Below, in pieces: positions 715 through 31,496 of a DNA stretch of 32,960 nucleotides; position 1 is the stretch's first letter; each line of letters begins with the position of its first letter. Source of the DNA: a virus; IMG/VR virus record IMGVR_UViG_3300030098_004818, positions 1-32,960 of that record. One strand, given 5' to 3'. Both the position numbers and the translations under genes were made by a program. A model generated the notes under the pieces. That model was not told where the DNA came from and searched no databases. It saw nothing but the letters and a program-made list of their open reading frames with translations.

Positions 715-1518
715 TCAAATTACGTCTTTGATAACCTCGTTGTATGCGCTCTCATAAGTCTTACGAGTCTTTTCAATGTCATATGCTCTCATGCTTCCCA
801 CCGTTGACCCATGTTGCAGCAAAGCCATATCGGTCATTCCATATACTCTTCGGAGCATTCCCACTAGCTGTATCGTTTCTTTTTTAAAAATCATTTTTAA
901 CAGATTGAACCAGTAGTCGTCTTTGGTTTCATCGCTTAACTCATATGTACCTTTTTTACGTTGAGTTAGAATATTTTCTTTTAACGCTTGCGCCAAAAAA
1001 TTTGTTACGACAGTCTTTTTTACGCCATATCGTTGTGCTGTGAGTATGAGATTGCCTGTCGTTATTGGCATATTGTTGCTAAATTTATTTAAACAGACTC
1101 TTAATATTGTTAGATAGGTTGGGTTTTGCGAAAACGACCGAAAACTCTTAGATACGCCTTCATCAGTTCGCCGCTCTATGACAGATAAATTGAAAGCGGT
1201 TGTCACTGAGTGCAATTGCCATCGGACAGCCTTTATAATCCCGAATAATTCTGCAAAGTTTTCTTCGTTTGAAAGTGCTTTGTACTCTTCAATAGTATCA
1301 ACACTTGCCATCACCTTTGCTCTCGCGGTCATGCTTTTACTTTTTCGTGCCAACCTTTTTTGTATTCGCGTTAATCGTTCTCGTTGCTCGTTTTTCTCAT
1401 TAGCTTCATTTTGTAAAGCTTCTATTTTCTTCCGAAGCTGTCGATTCTCTTCAAGTAGCTCGTGATATTTTTGCTCTTGTGTTTTCTCGCGTTGCGGAAA
1501 CTGTTTGATATTATCCAT
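715..1518 (-). CDS. Coiled-coil / winged-helix protein co-transcribed with the integrase
   Basis: A 267-residue protein I cannot assign to a family. Residues about 10-65 are strongly charged and heptad-like (HELLEENRQLRKKIEALQ), predicting a coiled coil. Residues about 150-200 look like a winged helix-turn-helix: ITTGNLILTAQRYGVKKTVV, then a basic hairpin TQRKKGTYEL. It begins 8 nt inside the end of the integrase gene, with a GGGAG ribosome site nine bases upstream, so the two are probably translated from one message. A DNA-binding protein in this position could control integration direction, lysogeny or integrase expression, but that is inference. It is much larger than a typical excisionase. 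A replication initiator-like winged-helix protein is another possibility. Confidence 0.7.
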   Translation of the reverse strand: MDNIKQFPQREKTQEQKYHELLEENRQLRKKIEALQNEANEKNEQRERLTRIQKRLARKSKSMTARAKVMASVDTIEEYKALSNEENFAELFGIIKAVRWQLHSVTTAFNLSVIERRTDEGVSKSFRSFSQNPTYLTILRVCLNKFSNNMPITTGNLILTAQRYGVKKTVVTNFLAQALKENILTQRKKGTYELSDETKDDYWFNLLKMIFKKETIQLVGMLRRVYGMTDMALLQHGSTVGSMRAYDIEKTRKTYESAYNEVIKDVI

Positions 1519-2743
1519 TTTGACTTACTCCCTGTTTTATCATTTGCAGAGCTCCGGCTAATTGTGTGTCTCGCCGTGCGGACTGCATCCAGTGACCGTA
1601 AACATCTCGAGTCAGCATGATTGAAGAATGTCCCATCACCGTTGCAATGACGCTATCGGTCCACTGCAAATCAAACAATAGCACACTGGCATAGAAATGC
1701 CTCAGATCGTGCCAGTTCATTTTGTAGTCGCCGTCTCTTAGCTCGTCTTGCAAGCCAGCCTTTTTTATTGCTGGAAACAATCCAACCTTTCTCCACCGAT
1801 TGATCGGGGGATAGCCACCGTCAACATATGGAAACACAAGATTCTGTTTGCGTTGCCTTTGAGGCTGCTGCTCTTTCCATGCCAAAAGTCTTGCTTTTAG
1901 ATCAGCAACCAGCGGCACGAGGCGATTACCGGCTTCGGTTTTCGGGGCTCCCACATCACCGTCTTTTTTCTGTGCCTTGTTGACCCGAACAACATTGTTT
2001 GCAAATTGAATATCATCCCATGTAAGCGCAACCTGTTCGCCACGTCTGAGGCCGGTCCATGCCGCAAACTCCATGATAAGGTCAAACGGCTCTCCGCTCA
2101 TCTGTAACTGTTGGTTGTGGCCTCTCAAGCTTGCCTGTTCACCGTTCTCTATTATTGCAGCAATAGCGGCCTGAGAAATACGTTTAGCCTTGCGCTTGGT
2201 TTTTTTGGGCAGACGTATCAATCTTTCGCCTAGAGACCCGCACGGATTATATTTCAGCGTTCCTTGCACCACGCCAAACCGCAGGGCGCGTGAAAAAGCT
2301 GAGTACATATGACGGCCCGTTTTATTCGCCCGGCCCTCAAATATTTGCGGCACTAGGTGATGCTGTATGTCACCGCTTGTTAGTTGATGTACTGGGATGT
2401 TGCCGACCCGCGTTTTGTCAATGAGCATATCTGCGGCTTGGTTTAGATAATTCTCAAGTGCGTGAAAATAATTAGGGCTGATCTCTGACGGCACACGTCT
2501 ATTTTCAGCATGAAGAAAGCTGCCAAATTTTTCCGCTGCACCAACGAGCGTGTCGAAGTCTTTTTGTTTGGAATTATCAATGAATGTTTCGTCGGCGAGA
2601 CGCTCTTGGGTATGCTCAAGTATTTTTCTGGCCTCGGCCAGTGTTTTTGCGGTGGGCTGACCCCCGCCATATTTTCGCAGATCGATTCGGTATACGTCTC
2701 TTTTTTTGTGCTTAGTTATTTCTTGCGGGATGAAAGCTGGCAC
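1511..2743 (-). CDS. int: Tyrosine-family phage integrase
   Basis: A 410-residue site-specific recombinase that would join phage attP to a host tRNA gene. The catalytic set is visible: Arg in WTGLRRGEQVALTWDDI (about 230), the box HDLRHFYASV (about 345), and a distal motif MGHSSIMLTRDVYGHW whose Tyr is the nucleophile. The N-terminal part (MPAFIPQEITKHKKRDVYRI) resembles an arm-binding domain, followed by a SAM-like core-binding region around 65-160. The start is GTG, supported by AGGAG seven bases upstream. A possible promoter (TTGCTA, 17 bp, TAATAG) lies at 2777-2805. The attachment site sits just upstream at 2923-2950, the classical int-attP arrangement. Length and motifs are complete, so it should be functional. 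Confidence 0.96.
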   Translation of the reverse strand: MPAFIPQEITKHKKRDVYRIDLRKYGGGQPTAKTLAEARKILEHTQERLADETFIDNSKQKDFDTLVGAAEKFGSFLHAENRRVPSEISPNYFHALENYLNQAADMLIDKTRVGNIPVHQLTSGDIQHHLVPQIFEGRANKTGRHMYSAFSRALRFGVVQGTLKYNPCGSLGERLIRLPKKTKRKAKRISQAAIAAIIENGEQASLRGHNQQLQMSGEPFDLIMEFAAWTGLRRGEQVALTWDDIQFANNVVRVNKAQKKDGDVGAPKTEAGNRLVPLVADLKARLLAWKEQQPQRQRKQNLVFPYVDGGYPPINRWRKVGLFPAIKKAGLQDELRDGDYKMNWHDLRHFYASVLLFDLQWTDSVIATVMGHSSIMLTRDVYGHWMQSARRDTQLAGALQMIKQGVSQNG

Positions 2744-17622: not shown

Positions 17623-18099
17623 TTAGTCAACAACATAGTGCATCACGAGTTCAATCGTGCCGGTGGCTGCCGCACCGGCGAGAGTCACTGTGATCACAAA
17701 CTCGTTGTCAATGACCGACTGGTCAATATCAACGGCTGTGTTTGCACTAAGTGCTAGTGTAGCGGCTACATCGGTTCTCGCAGCACTTGACGTGCTTGTT
17801 GCAGCGAGATACTCGTCGCCATCGGCTGATACAGATGAGCCTGAGCTATCCGTATATGCCGCATGACCAACCGCTAATGTTGTCGAAGAACCTAGCGCAT
17901 CATTATAGAGATACCCGCCGAGAATCCTCGCGCCTTGCGGCAACGAAAACATCTCAATGATATCTCCAGCACTGAGGCTAGAGGCTTCGTATTGGGCTTG
18001 CGCCACCCTAATGGAACCGCCAAGCTGGTTTGACTTGACAAATTCTTTCGGATCGTCCTGTGTAAGGTCGGTCCGAACATTACTGTAAACAGTAGCCAT
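17623..18099 (-). CDS. Probable head decoration or minor capsid protein
   Basis: A 158-residue protein rich in Ala, Ser and Thr, beginning MATVYSNVRTDLTQDDPKEF. It contains FSLPQGARILGGYLYNDALG and a beta-rich tail ending TGTIELVMHYVVD. Proteins like this follow the capsid gene in many marine podoviruses and are probably capsid decoration proteins. The excellent ribosome site AAGGAG lies just before the ATG and immediately after the second capsid exon, so high expression is expected. The decoration role is inference from position and composition. Confidence 0.75.
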   Translation of the reverse strand: MATVYSNVRTDLTQDDPKEFVKSNQLGGSIRVAQAQYEASSLSAGDIIEMFSLPQGARILGGYLYNDALGSSTTLAVGHAAYTDSSGSSVSADGDEYLAATSTSSAARTDVAATLALSANTAVDIDQSVIDNEFVITVTLAGAAATGTIELVMHYVVD

Positions 18100-18115: not shown

Positions 18116-19225
18116 TTACTCGTTACAGGCAATTTCAACGACTTTGTCTTCTTCCATCATTTTGTGTTCACCTTGGTTCGTTAGACCAAGACCGCTTTCG
18201 CTGCTGAACGTCACCGCCCAGTTCAGATCATATCATCGTCTATGTAAGACGCTCGGCGCTTCGGCATCACTTGATGCCTACTCCATTTCTGGATGATCGT
18301 TGCACCTTCCAGCTTGCGCTGGCTTGGCTCAGAATTGTCTCTCGCGAGAGGTTCTCTGAGTTCACCGAGTTTTTCACTAGTGCGTTGCCGCACTAGGCCG
18401 CATGGATTTACGGGTCGCACCGAAGGTCGCACAGTAGTACACCTGGGTGGAATAAGACTTGTCGCTGCGCTCGTCGATTCGTGCCATCACATCCTTGCCT
18501 ACGGCTAATTTTACGCCGTCTTGGGCGAAAGCATAACAAAGGCGGGAAGTGCCATCGTCAGACAATCGATTGGATACGATGAACTCGAAGCCGACAAAGC
18601 TTGATATGTCACCTTGAGCAAGTGCTTTCACGGTATTAAAATCACTGCTCGTGACTGTCGTGTTGTTGAGCAGATCTTCGATTTGCTCAGGGCTCACAAC
18701 GATGAAACGCTTGATGCTTGGGTCCACACTATTGGCGTCAAGTTTCTTTTTACTTTCGACCAATTTTGCAATGGTTAATCCCGCACTACCATGCGCTATT
18801 TTTTGGCCCGAGGGAAACGCAGTACTCGTTGTTCCCGTCTTGCCCGTTTTGGCGGTGCCTCCTAAAGCATCAATGATGACATCATCCATGGAACGCCCAA
18901 TCGCGGCGGCTGCTGCCCGACTGTAACTGCTCGTTGGATCTGCCAACATTCTTACTTTATCAGCATCGTCAATTAGGTCAGCCCATTCGTAAGTGGTCAG
19001 GCTGACCATACGCCGAGAGTGTGGCGTTTCTACAAGAGGCGTATCTCCGTGTCGGCTGGTACGGGCAACGGCTGCTGCCTCTCCCACCTGATCGAAGAAT
19101 GCCTTTTCGCCAGTGACAGATTCACTGTCAACGGCACCTCGCAACAGACTTCCCATCTGCTGCGAGAGCATTGAGACGTTTGCAGAAAACTGATTTACAA
19201 ACGCCGTAGTGATTTGAGTAGACAT
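18116..19225 (-). CDS. Major capsid protein, interrupted by a group I intron (join of 18410-19225 and 18116-18157)
   Basis: The spliced product is 285 residues: 272 from exon 1 (19225 to 18410) and 13 from exon 2 (18157 to 18116). Exon 1 has capsid features MSTQITTAFVNQFSANVSML, TYEWADLIDDADKVRMLADP, IKRFIVVSPEQIEDLL and YSTQVYYCATFGATR. Exon 2 adds MEEDKVVEIACNE, which matches the usual C-terminus of this capsid family as I recall it. Without splicing, translation enters the intron, adds KSMRPSAATH and stops at TAG (18377-18379), giving a 282-residue protein with the wrong end. Exon 1 ends on a codon boundary, so joining is in frame. AGGAG lies eight bases before the ATG. The shell protein assembles on the scaffold encoded upstream. 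Confidence 0.93.
18158..18409 (-). ncRNA. Group I self-splicing intron without ORF, in the capsid gene
   Basis: A 252-nt intron. In intron numbering (nt n = window 18410 minus n): guide CCAUGCGG at 5-12. Its GCGG pairs with the 5' exon end CCGU, with the required U.G at the splice site (P1), and its CCAU pairs with the 3' exon start AUGG (P10). P2 is CTAGTGC/GCACTAG (14-20/27-33). P4 is CTCAGA/TCTGAG (50-55/77-82). P5 is CTCT/AGAG. P6a is CCAGC-GCAA-GCTGG (88-101), with a GNRA loop. P7 is GATC/GATC (112-115/181-184), inside R-like GTGCAACGATC and S-like GATATGATC. P8 is GGCATC/GATGCC (132-147). P9 elements are at 184-206 and 220-238. The last base is G (252). The text GAGCCAAGCC...GGTGCA recalls tRNA-Leu group I introns. 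No homing endonuclease is encoded. Confidence 0.93.
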
Positions 19226-24236: not shown

Positions 24237-24382
24237 TACTTACCTACTTGCTTCTGTGCTGCTTTGTGAGCCTTTGAGAAGCTTGCGCCGCCGCGCATGA
24301 GCCGCCGCATCATGCTCATATGCTTGCTGGTGTGGTGAACACTGTGTTTTTTAAGAGTCTTTTTATCGCGCTTGGTAATCAT
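24236..24382 (-). CDS. 48-residue basic protein
   Basis: Encodes MITKRDKKTLKKHSVHHTSK and then HMSMMRRLMRGGASFSKAHK with a short Lys-rich end. The HxxHHTSKHM pattern followed by a GxSFxxAHK motif is familiar from small phage proteins, but I know no function. The ATG overlaps the end of the HNH-like gene and the TAA overlaps the next ATG. Confidence 0.7.
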   Translation of the reverse strand: MITKRDKKTLKKHSVHHTSKHMSMMRRLMRGGASFSKAHKAAQKQVGK

Positions 24383-24597
24383 TTCTTGCTCCGGTTTCGG
24401 CCCCGCGCCATGACTGAGAGGTTGGCGGTGCGGTTGTCGCGGGGGTTGCCGTTTCGGTGGTCTACATCCTTGCCATCGCCTTTACGTGTGCGCCCCAGTG
24501 CCGTCATCTTTGCCCGTGCGGCGTTGCGACCAGCGCGGTTTTTCTTCTGCGCCGGTTTGCTGTGGTAGCTTTTGTATTCTGCCGTGTAATTACGCAT
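24379..24597 (-). CDS. Small HNH-like basic protein
   Basis: A 72-residue Lys/Arg-rich protein with KDVDHRNGNPRDNRTANLSV near the C-terminus. The DVDH...N.R.N..NL pattern matches the core of HNH nuclease domains, although the third metal ligand is not obvious. It heads the run of small genes before terL. HNH proteins next to terminases assist packaging in some phages; whether this short one is active is unknown. A degenerate homing nuclease is another reading, given the intron in the capsid gene. Confidence 0.65.
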   Translation of the reverse strand: MRNYTAEYKSYHSKPAQKKNRAGRNAARAKMTALGRTRKGDGKDVDHRNGNPRDNRTANLSVMARGRNRSKK

Positions 24598-30024: not shown

Positions 30025-30130
30025 ATTCTCTAATCACATTCCAAACTTCTGATTCTCTGACACCAATTACCACCGCAACCTCAGCCGTGCTCATGCGGTG
30101 GCGGTAATATAAATCAAGGATTGCATTCAT
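29972..30130 (-). CDS. 52-residue HTH protein overlapping the primase start
   Basis: Encodes MNAILDLYYRHRMSTAEVAV followed by VIGVRESEVWNVIREYGDEY and a basic tail. The helix-turn-helix is of the small sigma-region-4 or recombinase-linker kind. It overlaps the methyltransferase end by 17 nt and the primase start by 53 nt in another frame, so coupling is likely. The short length and good fit of the HTH pattern argue for a real gene. Partner and target unknown. Confidence 0.62.
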   Translation of the reverse strand: MNAILDLYYRHRMSTAEVAVVIGVRESEVWNVIREYGDEYRDRREGKIRRAK

Positions 30131-31016
30131 CTGCTTCCATTATCGCTCTTCCGATTTGTTCGACGACTTGCGGGACGACGGCATTTCCGAGGGCTTTAAG
30201 TCTGTCCACCCTGTTGGGAACCCCATGAGCCACTCGACCCACTGGGGGTTCAAAGTCCCAACCCCTGTGTTTCTGACCTCTGGGTGATTGCCCATCATCT
30301 TCTGCATTTTGCCGTTGGGTGTACCGCAAGCGTCTTCGTTCGCTGTCGGTGTCGGCCACATTTTTTTTTCTTCTCGAAAAACTCTGATCGTTAATTTGCT
30401 GTCGTCTCGACTGCCCAAGCCTCTGTCTGTTTGCGTTGGTGTGTCCTTGTAATCCCTCGCCATTGGCGTCGGCCACCAGCTTCCTGGGTCGCGGGACTTC
30501 ATCGACGGAGCCATCTGGTTCGCCTTGGCTGTCGGCGTGTGCAATAATCCAGACTCTGTCGCGTCGGTGCGGCGCATCGACACTGCAAGCTCCAATAATA
30601 AATGGGACGGCTTGATACCCGATGCCTTCCAAGTCAGAAAGGCTGCGCTCGAGCCCCATTGGTTGGTTAACAAAGCCGCGCACATTTTCGCCAACAAGCC
30701 AGCGTGGCCGTAACTCTCCAACAAGGCGAGCCATTTCCGGCCAGAGATCACGGTCATCTTCTGCGCCTCGCTGCTCCCCGGCTTGGGACCAGGGCTGGCA
30801 AGGAAACCCACCGACGATGATGTCAACTCTTCCAAGTCGATCTGTGTCGATGGTTCGCACGTCGTCGTAGATTGGCGTGTTGGGCCAGTGCTTTCGCAAG
30901 ACGGCTTGGCAGAACTTGTCTTGTTCACAGAAGGCGATGGTTTGAAAAGCTCCTGCTGAACACAGCCGCTCCAGTGCATATGAGAATCCTCCGATCCCGC
31001 TAAAGAGGTCGAGCAC
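30114..31016 (-). CDS. DNA cytosine-5 methyltransferase
   Basis: A 300-residue enzyme that would methylate cytosine in a specific site, probably for protection from restriction. Motif I is LDLFSGIGGF, motif IV is IIVGGFPCQPWSQAG with the catalytic Cys, motif VI is VGENVRGF, motif VIII is HRRDRVWIIAHA, and motif X is ALGNAVVPQVVEQIG. The annotated start is a GTG at 31016 with no ribosome site. The reading frame is closed upstream by the GNAT stop. The natural ATG, at 31039 overlapping that stop, is in a different frame. A -1 shift on the nine-A run at 31025-31033 would join it to TLHVLDLFSGIGG, a normal N-terminus for the family. Confidence 0.9.
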   Translation of the reverse strand: MLDLFSGIGGFSYALERLCSAGAFQTIAFCEQDKFCQAVLRKHWPNTPIYDDVRTIDTDRLGRVDIIVGGFPCQPWSQAGEQRGAEDDRDLWPEMARLVGELRPRWLVGENVRGFVNQPMGLERSLSDLEGIGYQAVPFIIGACSVDAPHRRDRVWIIAHADSQGEPDGSVDEVPRPRKLVADANGEGLQGHTNANRQRLGQSRRQQINDQSFSRRKKNVADTDSERRRLRYTQRQNAEDDGQSPRGQKHRGWDFEPPVGRVAHGVPNRVDRLKALGNAVVPQVVEQIGRAIMEADECNP

Positions 31017-31039
31017 ATGAAGTGTTTTTTTTTATTCAT
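30140..31039 (-). CDS. Overlapping 299-codon open frame within the methyltransferase gene
   Basis: In a second minus-strand frame, open from ATG 31039 to a stop at 30140, the translation reads MNKKKHFMCSTSLAGSEDSH and later contains LLAKMCAALLTNQWGSSAAF, SGLLHTPTAKANQMAP, WPTPTANEDACGTPNGKM and WVEWLMGFPTGWTDLKPSEM. I recall WPTPTA and WVEWLMGFP.GWT motifs in many phage proteins in databases. Whether they are a true overprinted gene or are maintained only because the methyltransferase frame is conserved is unclear. The ATG overlaps the GNAT stop, a usual coupling. Listed as possible, not certain. Confidence 0.35.
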   Translation of the reverse strand: MNKKKHFMCSTSLAGSEDSHMHWSGCVQQELFKPSPSVNKTSSAKPSCESTGPTRQSTTTCEPSTQIDLEELTSSSVGFLASPGPKPGSSEAQKMTVISGRKWLALLESYGHAGLLAKMCAALLTNQWGSSAAFLTWKASGIKPSHLLLELAVSMRRTDATESGLLHTPTAKANQMAPSMKSRDPGSWWPTPMARDYKDTPTQTDRGLGSRDDSKLTIRVFREEKKMWPTPTANEDACGTPNGKMQKMMGNHPEVRNTGVGTLNPQWVEWLMGFPTGWTDLKPSEMPSSRKSSNKSEER

Positions 31040-31496
31040 CACCCAGCAACTTCCGAAACGTTACACTGCCCTGCTTGTAGCCGAGACCCCGATAAAAGCG
31101 GCCCGCCAGTTCATCGGATATGCCAGCGGATACCCCAAAGCTAATCTCTTGCACGCCTATGCTTTGAGCCCATTTCTCATAGGCTTTGACCAGCCTCACC
31201 GCCGCCATGCCACCCCGCGCATCGGGATGCACATACGTTAAAAAGTCACAGACAATTTTGTGATCAGGGCAAAAATAGTGAGAGCTTACAAAACCGGCAA
31301 TTACGCCGTTAATGCCGCCCTCCGCCTCGGAAACAAATACGCCAAACTCTTTCTCACGCCCCACAGCCCATGCCGTATAGTTAAGAAGATGATCACGATC
31401 AAACTCGAACACGTTAAACACGCTCTCTCTATGCATGACGGCCCCGAGATCCACAATCTCACACACATCGTCGATCATGGCTCTTCGCACTGCCAT
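31032..31496 (-). CDS. GNAT-family N-acetyltransferase
   Basis: A 154-residue acetyltransferase. The fold is visible in MAVRRAMIDDVCEIVDLGAV, FGVFVSEAEGGINGVIAGFV, LTYVHPDARGGMAAVRLVKA (acetyl-CoA loop, degenerate) and ISDELAGRFYRGLGYKQGSV near the end. Substrate unknown. Such genes are common in phage early regions and may modify host proteins, DNA bases or toxins. The ATG overlaps the preceding stop (TAATG). Confidence 0.85.
   Translation of the reverse strand: MAVRRAMIDDVCEIVDLGAVMHRESVFNVFEFDRDHLLNYTAWAVGREKEFGVFVSEAEGGINGVIAGFVSSHYFCPDHKIVCDFLTYVHPDARGGMAAVRLVKAYEKWAQSIGVQEISFGVSAGISDELAGRFYRGLGYKQGSVTFRKLLGDE

What the first reader, a model, noticed from the sequence alone, without database searches (positions are those of the whole stretch)
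18158..18409. Group I intron without ORF inside the major capsid gene
Seen: the capsid frame stops early within a 252-nt segment. Removing it joins GCGACCCGT to ATGGAAGAAG in frame and restores a family-like C-terminus. P1 (CCGU with GCGG, U.G at the splice site) and P10 (CCAU with AUGG) both form from one guide. P2, P4, P5, P6a (GCAA loop), P7, P8 and P9 are all present, and the intron ends in G. Known: group I introns in phages mostly interrupt replication, nucleotide metabolism or terminase genes. A minimal one in a capsid gene is unusual and would make virion assembly depend on splicing.
Basis: partly seen in the sequence, partly recalled or inferred. Interest (0 to 1): 0.92.

Follow-up and report, generated by a model that had tools for sequence, protein, structure and literature searches.

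The report
Self-splicing introns crowd phage capsid gene
The capsid gene of this marine phage is interrupted by an RNA that very probably cuts itself out, and relatives carry up to four such small introns in the same gene at 15 positions, which makes the gene a natural test case for how introns without an enzyme of their own spread.

Summary
Window 18158-18409 (minus strand) is a 252-nt, ORF-less group I intron inside the major capsid protein (MCP) gene. Rfam Intron_gpI scores 57.1 bits, E=4e-12. All 80 closest MCP relatives are uninterrupted exactly at the predicted junction and carry the predicted C-terminus; the nearest are 92% identical. P1, P10 and the P3/P7 pseudoknot are supported by covariation. 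The intron is not minimal: P7.1/P7.2 and P9.2 make it IA-like.

Beyond the finding: the MCP gene of this marine HTVC010P-like phage group is an intron hotspot. Among 209 distinct MCP genes (sampling partly biased), 43 hold 65 resolved ORF-less introns at 15 sites, up to four per gene. Of 72 group I matches in 98 related contigs, 71 lie in MCP and one in the next head gene. The window's intron is 92-96% identical to introns at the same site in phages whose MCP genes are only ~65% identical, with little flank conversion, so it is mobile although it encodes no endonuclease.

Precedents: the LittleE capsid intron and multi-intron MCP genes in crAss-like phages. Hence a new variant of a known kind. 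Splicing is inferred, not shown; the mobility mechanism is open.

The parts
18410..19225 (-). 5' exon of the major capsid protein gene (codons 1-272, ends ...GCGACCCGT)
   Evidence: Pfam Phage_capsid_2, E=1.9e-86; 80 relatives align over residues 1-272; AlphaFold model of the L002 MCP (92% identical) matches HK97-fold capsids, best E=3.5e-17
18158..18409 (-). group I intron, 252 nt, no ORF, begins AAATCC, ends ...AAAATG (terminal G); in-frame stop at intron nt 31 (18379-18377)
   Evidence: Rfam RF00028 57.1 bits, E=4e-12; exact junction by protein-to-genome alignment; empty site in 80 relatives
18116..18157 (-). 3' exon: MEEDKVVEIACNE + stop; forms the last beta strand of the capsid fold
   Evidence: strand 278-284 in the model of the L002 MCP
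18398..18413 (-). P1/P10 region: 5' exon CCGU (18413-18410) pairs with guide GCGG (18401-18398), U.G at the splice site; CCAU (18405-18402) pairs with 3' exon AUGG (18157-18154)
   Evidence: sequence; own exon pairs better than the exons of other sites over 15 sites, P1 p=5e-5, P10 p=5e-5
18377..18396 (-). P2 hairpin CUAGUGCG-GCAA-CGCACUAG
   Evidence: 8 of 8 pairs with double changes in relatives
18252..18369 (-). P3 (18369-18363 with 18258-18252), enclosing P4, P5, P6, P6a
   Evidence: P3 99% of cells paired, 4 of 7 pairs with double changes
18226..18298 (-). P7 (18298-18293 with 18231-18226), pseudoknotted with P3; encloses P7.1 (18292-18283), P7.2 (18278-18263) and P8 (18251-18237)
   Evidence: P7 100%, P7.1 100%, P7.2 90%, P8 99% of cells paired, with compensatory changes
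18172..18221 (-). P9 (18221-18204), P9.1 (18201-18194), P9.2 (18190-18172)
   Evidence: 97-100% of cells paired with compensatory changes
17623..18099 (-). next gene, virion structural protein; the counterpart in contig L227 carries the only group I intron found outside MCP
   Evidence: phrog_486 head and packaging, E=7e-15; L227 intron at 2669-2886, between the two halves of that gene
24379..24597 (-). 72-aa HNH_3 protein upstream of terL; candidate trans-acting endonuclease, unproven
   Evidence: PF13392 E=1.8e-7; a small HNH_3 gene in 6 of 17 mostly intron-bearing records and 2 of 24 intron-less ones, confounded by kinship and contig length

Best explanation
The segment is a group I (IA-like, P7.1/P7.2-bearing) self-splicing intron that lacks any ORF. 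The MCP pre-mRNA folds, an external guanosine attacks after the U of CCGU, and the freed 5' exon attacks after the terminal G; the exons join to give the 285-aa capsid protein (splicing chemistry inferred from the family). Unspliced RNA would end the protein at codon 282, with the last beta strand replaced by KSMRPSAATH. The intron is one copy of a mobile, ORF-less intron family for which the MCP gene of this marine podophage group is the favoured target. It spreads between phages at the same site and, over longer times, to new sites in the same gene. The most likely way of moving (inferred, open) is DNA recombination between co-infecting phages over very short flanking homology, with or without a break made in trans; spread to new sites is limited by the need for exon bases that pair with the intron guide. 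The stated confidence is for the intron and its splicing; for the DNA-recombination route as a whole (trans break included) it is about 0.6.
For: Shown: covariance hit; empty sites; exact junction; covariation, 95.3% of cells paired, 51 of 67 pairs with changes on both sides, covariation score 0.63 against 0.22 shuffled and at most 0.09 slid; P1 and P10 match own exons; in-frame stop in the first 60 nt of 48 of 49 introns against 31.9 expected by shuffling. Hotspot: 43 of 209 distinct MCP genes with 65 resolved introns at 15 sites; 71 of 72 Rfam matches in 98 records lie in MCP. Mobility: the window intron shares 231-242 of 252 bases (92-96%) with same-site introns while MCP exons are ~65% identical, with mismatches within 12 nt of the junction in most comparisons. 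Site-64 introns of L330/L334/L335/L336 are 100% identical with exons 79-94% identical. Close relatives differ: L326 none, L329 one, L328 three; L343 none against L346 one at branch length 0.00.
Against: No transcript or protein data were available, so splicing is not demonstrated. No endonuclease is encoded in any of the introns, and no GIY-YIG or reverse transcriptase was found in 14 intron-bearing records, so the mobility step has no proven agent. Contigs are fragments, so absence elsewhere is not absolute. The intron count is biased by the searches used.
Confidence: 0.9

Rival explanations
1. The introns move at the RNA level: an excised intron reverse-splices into MCP mRNA at another site with a matching guide sequence, and the product returns to DNA by reverse transcription and recombination. 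(A rival only for the mobility step.)
For: Related introns occupy several sites of one abundant mRNA; within lineages the guide and target are often shared (GCGG/CCGU at sites 64 and 275; GGCC/GGCU at 50, 52, 106; GCC/GGU at 47, 53, 201); flanking exons are hardly co-converted; no ORF in the introns. Reverse-splicing spread has been argued for fungal rDNA (PMC1299323).
Against: No reverse transcriptase in 14 intron-bearing phage records. Matching guide and exon is required for splicing whatever the route of insertion. T4 td homing is known to work with very short homology (own knowledge), so lack of co-conversion does not exclude DNA-level homing.
Confidence: 0.2
2. Trans homing: a free-standing endonuclease, for example the small HNH_3 protein upstream of terL, cuts intron-less MCP genes and the ORF-less introns ride on the repair. 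(A specific form of the DNA route.)
For: The window and the intron-bearing records G001, G018, G023, G054 and G069 carry a small HNH_3 gene a few kb from MCP; 22 of 24 intron-less records show none. Trans homing of introns is known in phages (own knowledge).
Against: G016 carries an intron and lacks it; intron-less G027 and G031 have it; the distribution follows kinship and contig length. Fifteen different sites would need many specificities.
Confidence: 0.3
3. The insertion is a pseudogenising or assembly artefact, or a translational device such as a frameshift or bypass, and the capsid protein ends early.
For: The unspliced frame gives a 282-aa protein, 3 residues shorter than the spliced one.
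Against: Independent contigs carry the same intron; the structure covaries, pseudoknot included; the exact family C-terminus is restored and is present, with small variations, in all 80 closest relatives; introns at other sites would remove most of the capsid.
Confidence: 0.02
4. The introns regulate capsid output, for example by delaying MCP until late infection or sensing host state, and are kept by selection.
For: They are confined to the gene needed in most copies per virion; the early in-frame stop couples translation to splicing.
Against: Presence is patchy among nearly identical phages, which fits gain and loss of a near-neutral parasite better.
Confidence: 0.08

Closest known systems
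Mycobacteriophage LittleE major capsid gene intron (PMC3706429)
   Same: Intron in the major capsid gene; spliced in infected cells; U before the 5' splice site, terminal G; absent from close relatives.
   Different: About 820 bp, with a putative LAGLIDADG-like endonuclease frame; single intron; siphovirus of Mycobacterium; its authors call the group I assignment likely, not certain.
MCP introns of crAss-like phages, Delta and Zeta groups (PMC7886860)
   Same: Group I introns in MCP; one Zeta MCP gene is split into five fragments.
   Different: Large phages with introns in many genes (up to 14 per genome), identified there mainly by their endonuclease domains, together with inteins and recoding; here the introns are ORF-less, 188-269 nt and found only in MCP and its neighbour.
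Phage Twort orf142 (tail tube) with three group I introns (Landthaler and Shub 1999, as cited in PMC11878797)
   Same: Several group I introns in one virion structural gene.
   Different: A Staphylococcus myovirus tail gene, and one phage; here 15 sites across a clade with horizontal transfer.
Group I introns in phage terL, DNA polymerase and psbA genes, e.g. Vibrio phage R16F terL and S-CBWM1 psbA intron 2
   Same: Closest sequence relatives of the ribozyme core among named phages (about 72-78% over the aligned part).
   Different: Other genes, and no match over 80% of the intron.

Membership tests
Group I intron (Rfam RF00028) | Match to the covariance model above the gathering score | tested here: met
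   57.1 bits against 50, model 1-253
Group I intron (Rfam RF00028) | P3/P7 pseudoknot and P4-P6 core | tested here: met
   P3 99.2%, P7 100%, P4 98%, P6 100% of cells paired with compensatory changes
Group I intron (Rfam RF00028) | P1 with U.G at the 5' splice site, P10, terminal G | tested here: met
   sequence; permutation test over 15 sites, p=5e-5 for each
Group I intron (Rfam RF00028) | Insertion absent from homologues with exact exon joining | tested here: met
   80 of 80 closest relatives
Group I intron (Rfam RF00028) | Guanosine-initiated self-splicing | not testable with these tools
   needs in vitro transcription with GTP
Subgroup IA | P7.1/P7.2 between P7 5' strand and P3 3' strand | tested here: met
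   two hairpins, 100% and 90% of cells paired; no subgroup-specific model was run
Mobile (homing) group I intron | Encodes its own homing endonuclease | tested here: not met
   introns of 188-269 nt, longest open stretch 83 codons; no GIY-YIG in 14 records and no PF01844 hit above cut-off
Mobile (homing) group I intron | Horizontal spread to the same site | tested here: met
   intron 92-96% against exons ~65% for the window and L212/L215/L328
HK97-fold major capsid protein (Pfam Phage_capsid_2) | Profile and fold match | tested here: met
   E=1.9e-86; Foldseek best E=3.5e-17, LME-1 capsid

The most novel reading that the evidence does not exclude
The MCP mRNA of a marine phage lineage is a habitat in which ORF-less group I introns live and spread by RNA-guided reverse splicing, without any endonuclease. 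To my knowledge this would be the first natural case in phages in which RNA-level transposition of group I introns builds up several introns in one essential late gene.
Probability: 0.18. Interest if true: 0.85.

Novelty: new variant of a known kind. Interest (0 to 1): 0.62.

Why it matters
A group I intron in a capsid gene has precedents, but a small-genome phage group in which one essential virion gene has taken up ORF-less introns at 15 or more sites, up to four at a time, while the rest of the genome has almost none, is not described in the literature found here. It offers a natural experiment on two open questions: how group I introns without endonucleases move, and what it costs a virus to make its most abundant protein depend on several self-splicing events. 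It is also a practical warning: capsid genes used as markers for abundant marine phages are split in many contigs and will be missed or truncated by gene callers.

Tried and rejected
Artefact and bypass readings were rejected because independent contigs share the intron and its structure covaries. A single-intron view was rejected after the pattern scan gave L132, L145 and L198 with extra MCP introns. My first automatic junction finder misplaced several junctions, mainly at sites 50, 52, 64 and 275, and was replaced by a full protein-to-genome dynamic programme; two site-201 introns (L220, L347) were still shifted by 7 nt and corrected by hand, and junctions in L345, L357 and L368 remain less certain. 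A free-standing HNH gene as mobility agent was tested and left open. PF00078 and PF01541 gave nothing. The search of bacterial and archaeal genomes gave only intron-less MCP relatives at 31-75% identity and no clear host for the window.

Full report
What the window is. The window is a 32,960-base IMG/VR record. Its minus-strand order terL, portal, scaffold-like protein, MCP, head protein, tail tubular A- and B-like proteins, acetyltransferase-like protein matches Pelagibacter phage HTVC035P, whose relatives give the best MCP matches among named phages (65-70% identity). The window also carries a tyrosine integrase, a lysozyme and a C5 methylase. The host is unknown.

The observation. MCP frame 19225..18377 runs out of the family at residue 272. 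Rfam's group I model matches 18420..18204 over its full length, 57.1 bits, E=4e-12, the only RNA family hit in the window. Joining 18410 to 18157 restores MEEDKVVEIACNE. All 80 best relatives are uninterrupted there; the three nearest (92%) read GCGACCCGC|ATGGAAGAG. An independent protein-to-genome alignment with U-before and G-at-end rules chose the same 252 nt.

Structure. P1 (CCGU/GCGG with U.G), P10 (CCAU/AUGG), P2, P3, P4, P5, P6, P6a, P7, P7.1, P7.2, P8, P9, P9.1 and P9.2 can all be drawn. I wrote P2-P9.2 on an alignment of 17 related introns (A1) and counted pairs: 95.3% of cells paired, 51 of 67 pairs with changes on both sides, covariation score 0.63 against 0.22 for shuffles and at most 0.09 for slid versions. 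The structure was drawn from the window sequence, so the slid control flatters it, and related sequences can exceed the shuffles; but compensatory changes occur in P2, P3, P4, P7, P7.1, P7.2, P8, P9 and P9.2. P5 is the weakest helix (69% of cells). P7.1/P7.2 point to subgroup IA, the usual phage kind, but no subgroup model was run.

The hotspot. An exact scan for GTAAATCCATGCGG brought in contigs with the same intron at the same MCP site and, in the same gene, further group I introns. L145/L212 has four, each above Rfam's cut-off. Further scans gave 209 distinct MCP gene sequences: 156 intact, 7 cut by a contig edge, 46 broken or doubtful. In 43 of these, 65 introns (49 distinct sequences, 188-269 nt) were resolved at 15 sites: after codons 43, 47, 50, 52, 53, 60, 64, 65 (two phases), 68, 84, 106, 160, 201 and 275 in L132 numbering. 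Thirty genes have one, five two, seven three, one four. These are not population frequencies, since some scans were seeded with intron-bearing sequences. Ten of 15 sites fall in codons 41-75, the beta-hairpin that I take to be the E-loop in the model (binomial p about 1e-6 for that interval, which was chosen after looking).

Only the capsid gene. In 98 related records (1.62 Mb) Rfam finds 72 matches; 71 lie in MCP and one, in L227, in the head gene just downstream. MCP is about 5% of that DNA. Placement inside MCP was read from the coordinates of the matches against the gene positions, not by a separate script. Genome-scale intron-bearing contigs G001 (36.9 kb), G018 (41.1 kb) and G016 (26 kb) have introns nowhere else.

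History. A tree of introns with outside introns gives three groups of MCP introns: a ~190-nt lineage (sites 201, 47, 53, 65 phase 2; support 100); the sister pair of sites 64 and 275 (support 100), to which the window belongs; and a broader group (sites 43, 50, 52, 60, 65, 68, 84, 106, 160; support 94) that includes two outside introns. Within groups, guide and target are often shared. The MCP tree shows patchy presence: L326 none, L329 one, L328 three; L343 none and L346 one at zero distance. The window intron shares 231-242 of 252 bases with same-site introns, while the MCP coding sequences are about 65% identical; flanks drop towards background within about 12-30 nt. Other pairs with similar exon divergence have same-site introns only about 67-86% identical, so slow ribozyme evolution does not explain it well. 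The intron has most likely moved horizontally.

How it works. Shown: anatomy, junction, covariation, exon-guide matching (P1 and P10 better with own than other exons, p=5e-5 each), an early in-frame stop in 48 of 49 introns, near-identical introns in diverged genes. Inferred: guanosine-driven splicing in infected cells, loss of function of the unspliced capsid (the last beta strand, residues 278-284, would be replaced), and the route of movement. No reverse transcriptase or GIY-YIG gene was found in 14 intron-bearing records, and HNH PF01844 gave no hit above cut-off. A small HNH_3 gene, in the window just upstream of terL, is found in 6 of 17 searched records (the window and G001, G018, G023, G054, G069, all intron-bearing) and in 2 of 24 intron-less ones, but kinship and contig ends confound this.

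Compared with what is known. Capsid-gene introns: LittleE, spliced in vivo, with an endonuclease-like frame (PMC3706429; it also cites lactococcal Tuc2009). Multi-intron MCP: crAss-like phages, one gene in five fragments (PMC7886860). Several introns in one virion gene: Twort orf142 (cited in PMC11878797). The 2025 Bastillevirinae survey found introns in DNA polymerase, terminase and nucleotide metabolism genes (PMC11878797). New here are the ORF-less state, the confinement to one gene, the number of sites and the movement without long flank conversion. Hence a new variant of a known kind.

Noticed in passing
window 30114-31042 (-): Two 300-aa ORFs overlap by 877 nt on the same strand in different frames, and both match phage families called DNA methyltransferase (30114-31016: phrog_363 E=2e-80, Pfam DNA_methylase; 30140-31042: phrog_1008 E=4e-31, no Pfam hit). 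An unusually long pair of overlapping genes.
   Followed up: partly
L227:2669-2886: Group I intron in the virion structural gene immediately downstream of an intact MCP, the only one outside MCP in this set.
   Followed up: partly
window 24379-24597 (-): 72-aa HNH_3 protein just upstream of the terL region; similar small genes in related intron-bearing contigs.
   Followed up: partly
window 1511-2743 (-): Tyrosine integrase in this relative of HTVC010P-type phages, which suggests a temperate member.
   Followed up: no
L201 (Vibrio phage R16F terL): Terminase gene annotated as four separate 'terminase large subunit' fragments with a group I intron core between two of them; probably a multi-intron terL that was not annotated as such.
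   Followed up: no
MCP codons 41-75 in L212, L215, L330, L353, L225, L345, L387 and others: Ten of the 15 intron sites cluster in the presumed E-loop coding stretch; no reason known.
   Followed up: partly
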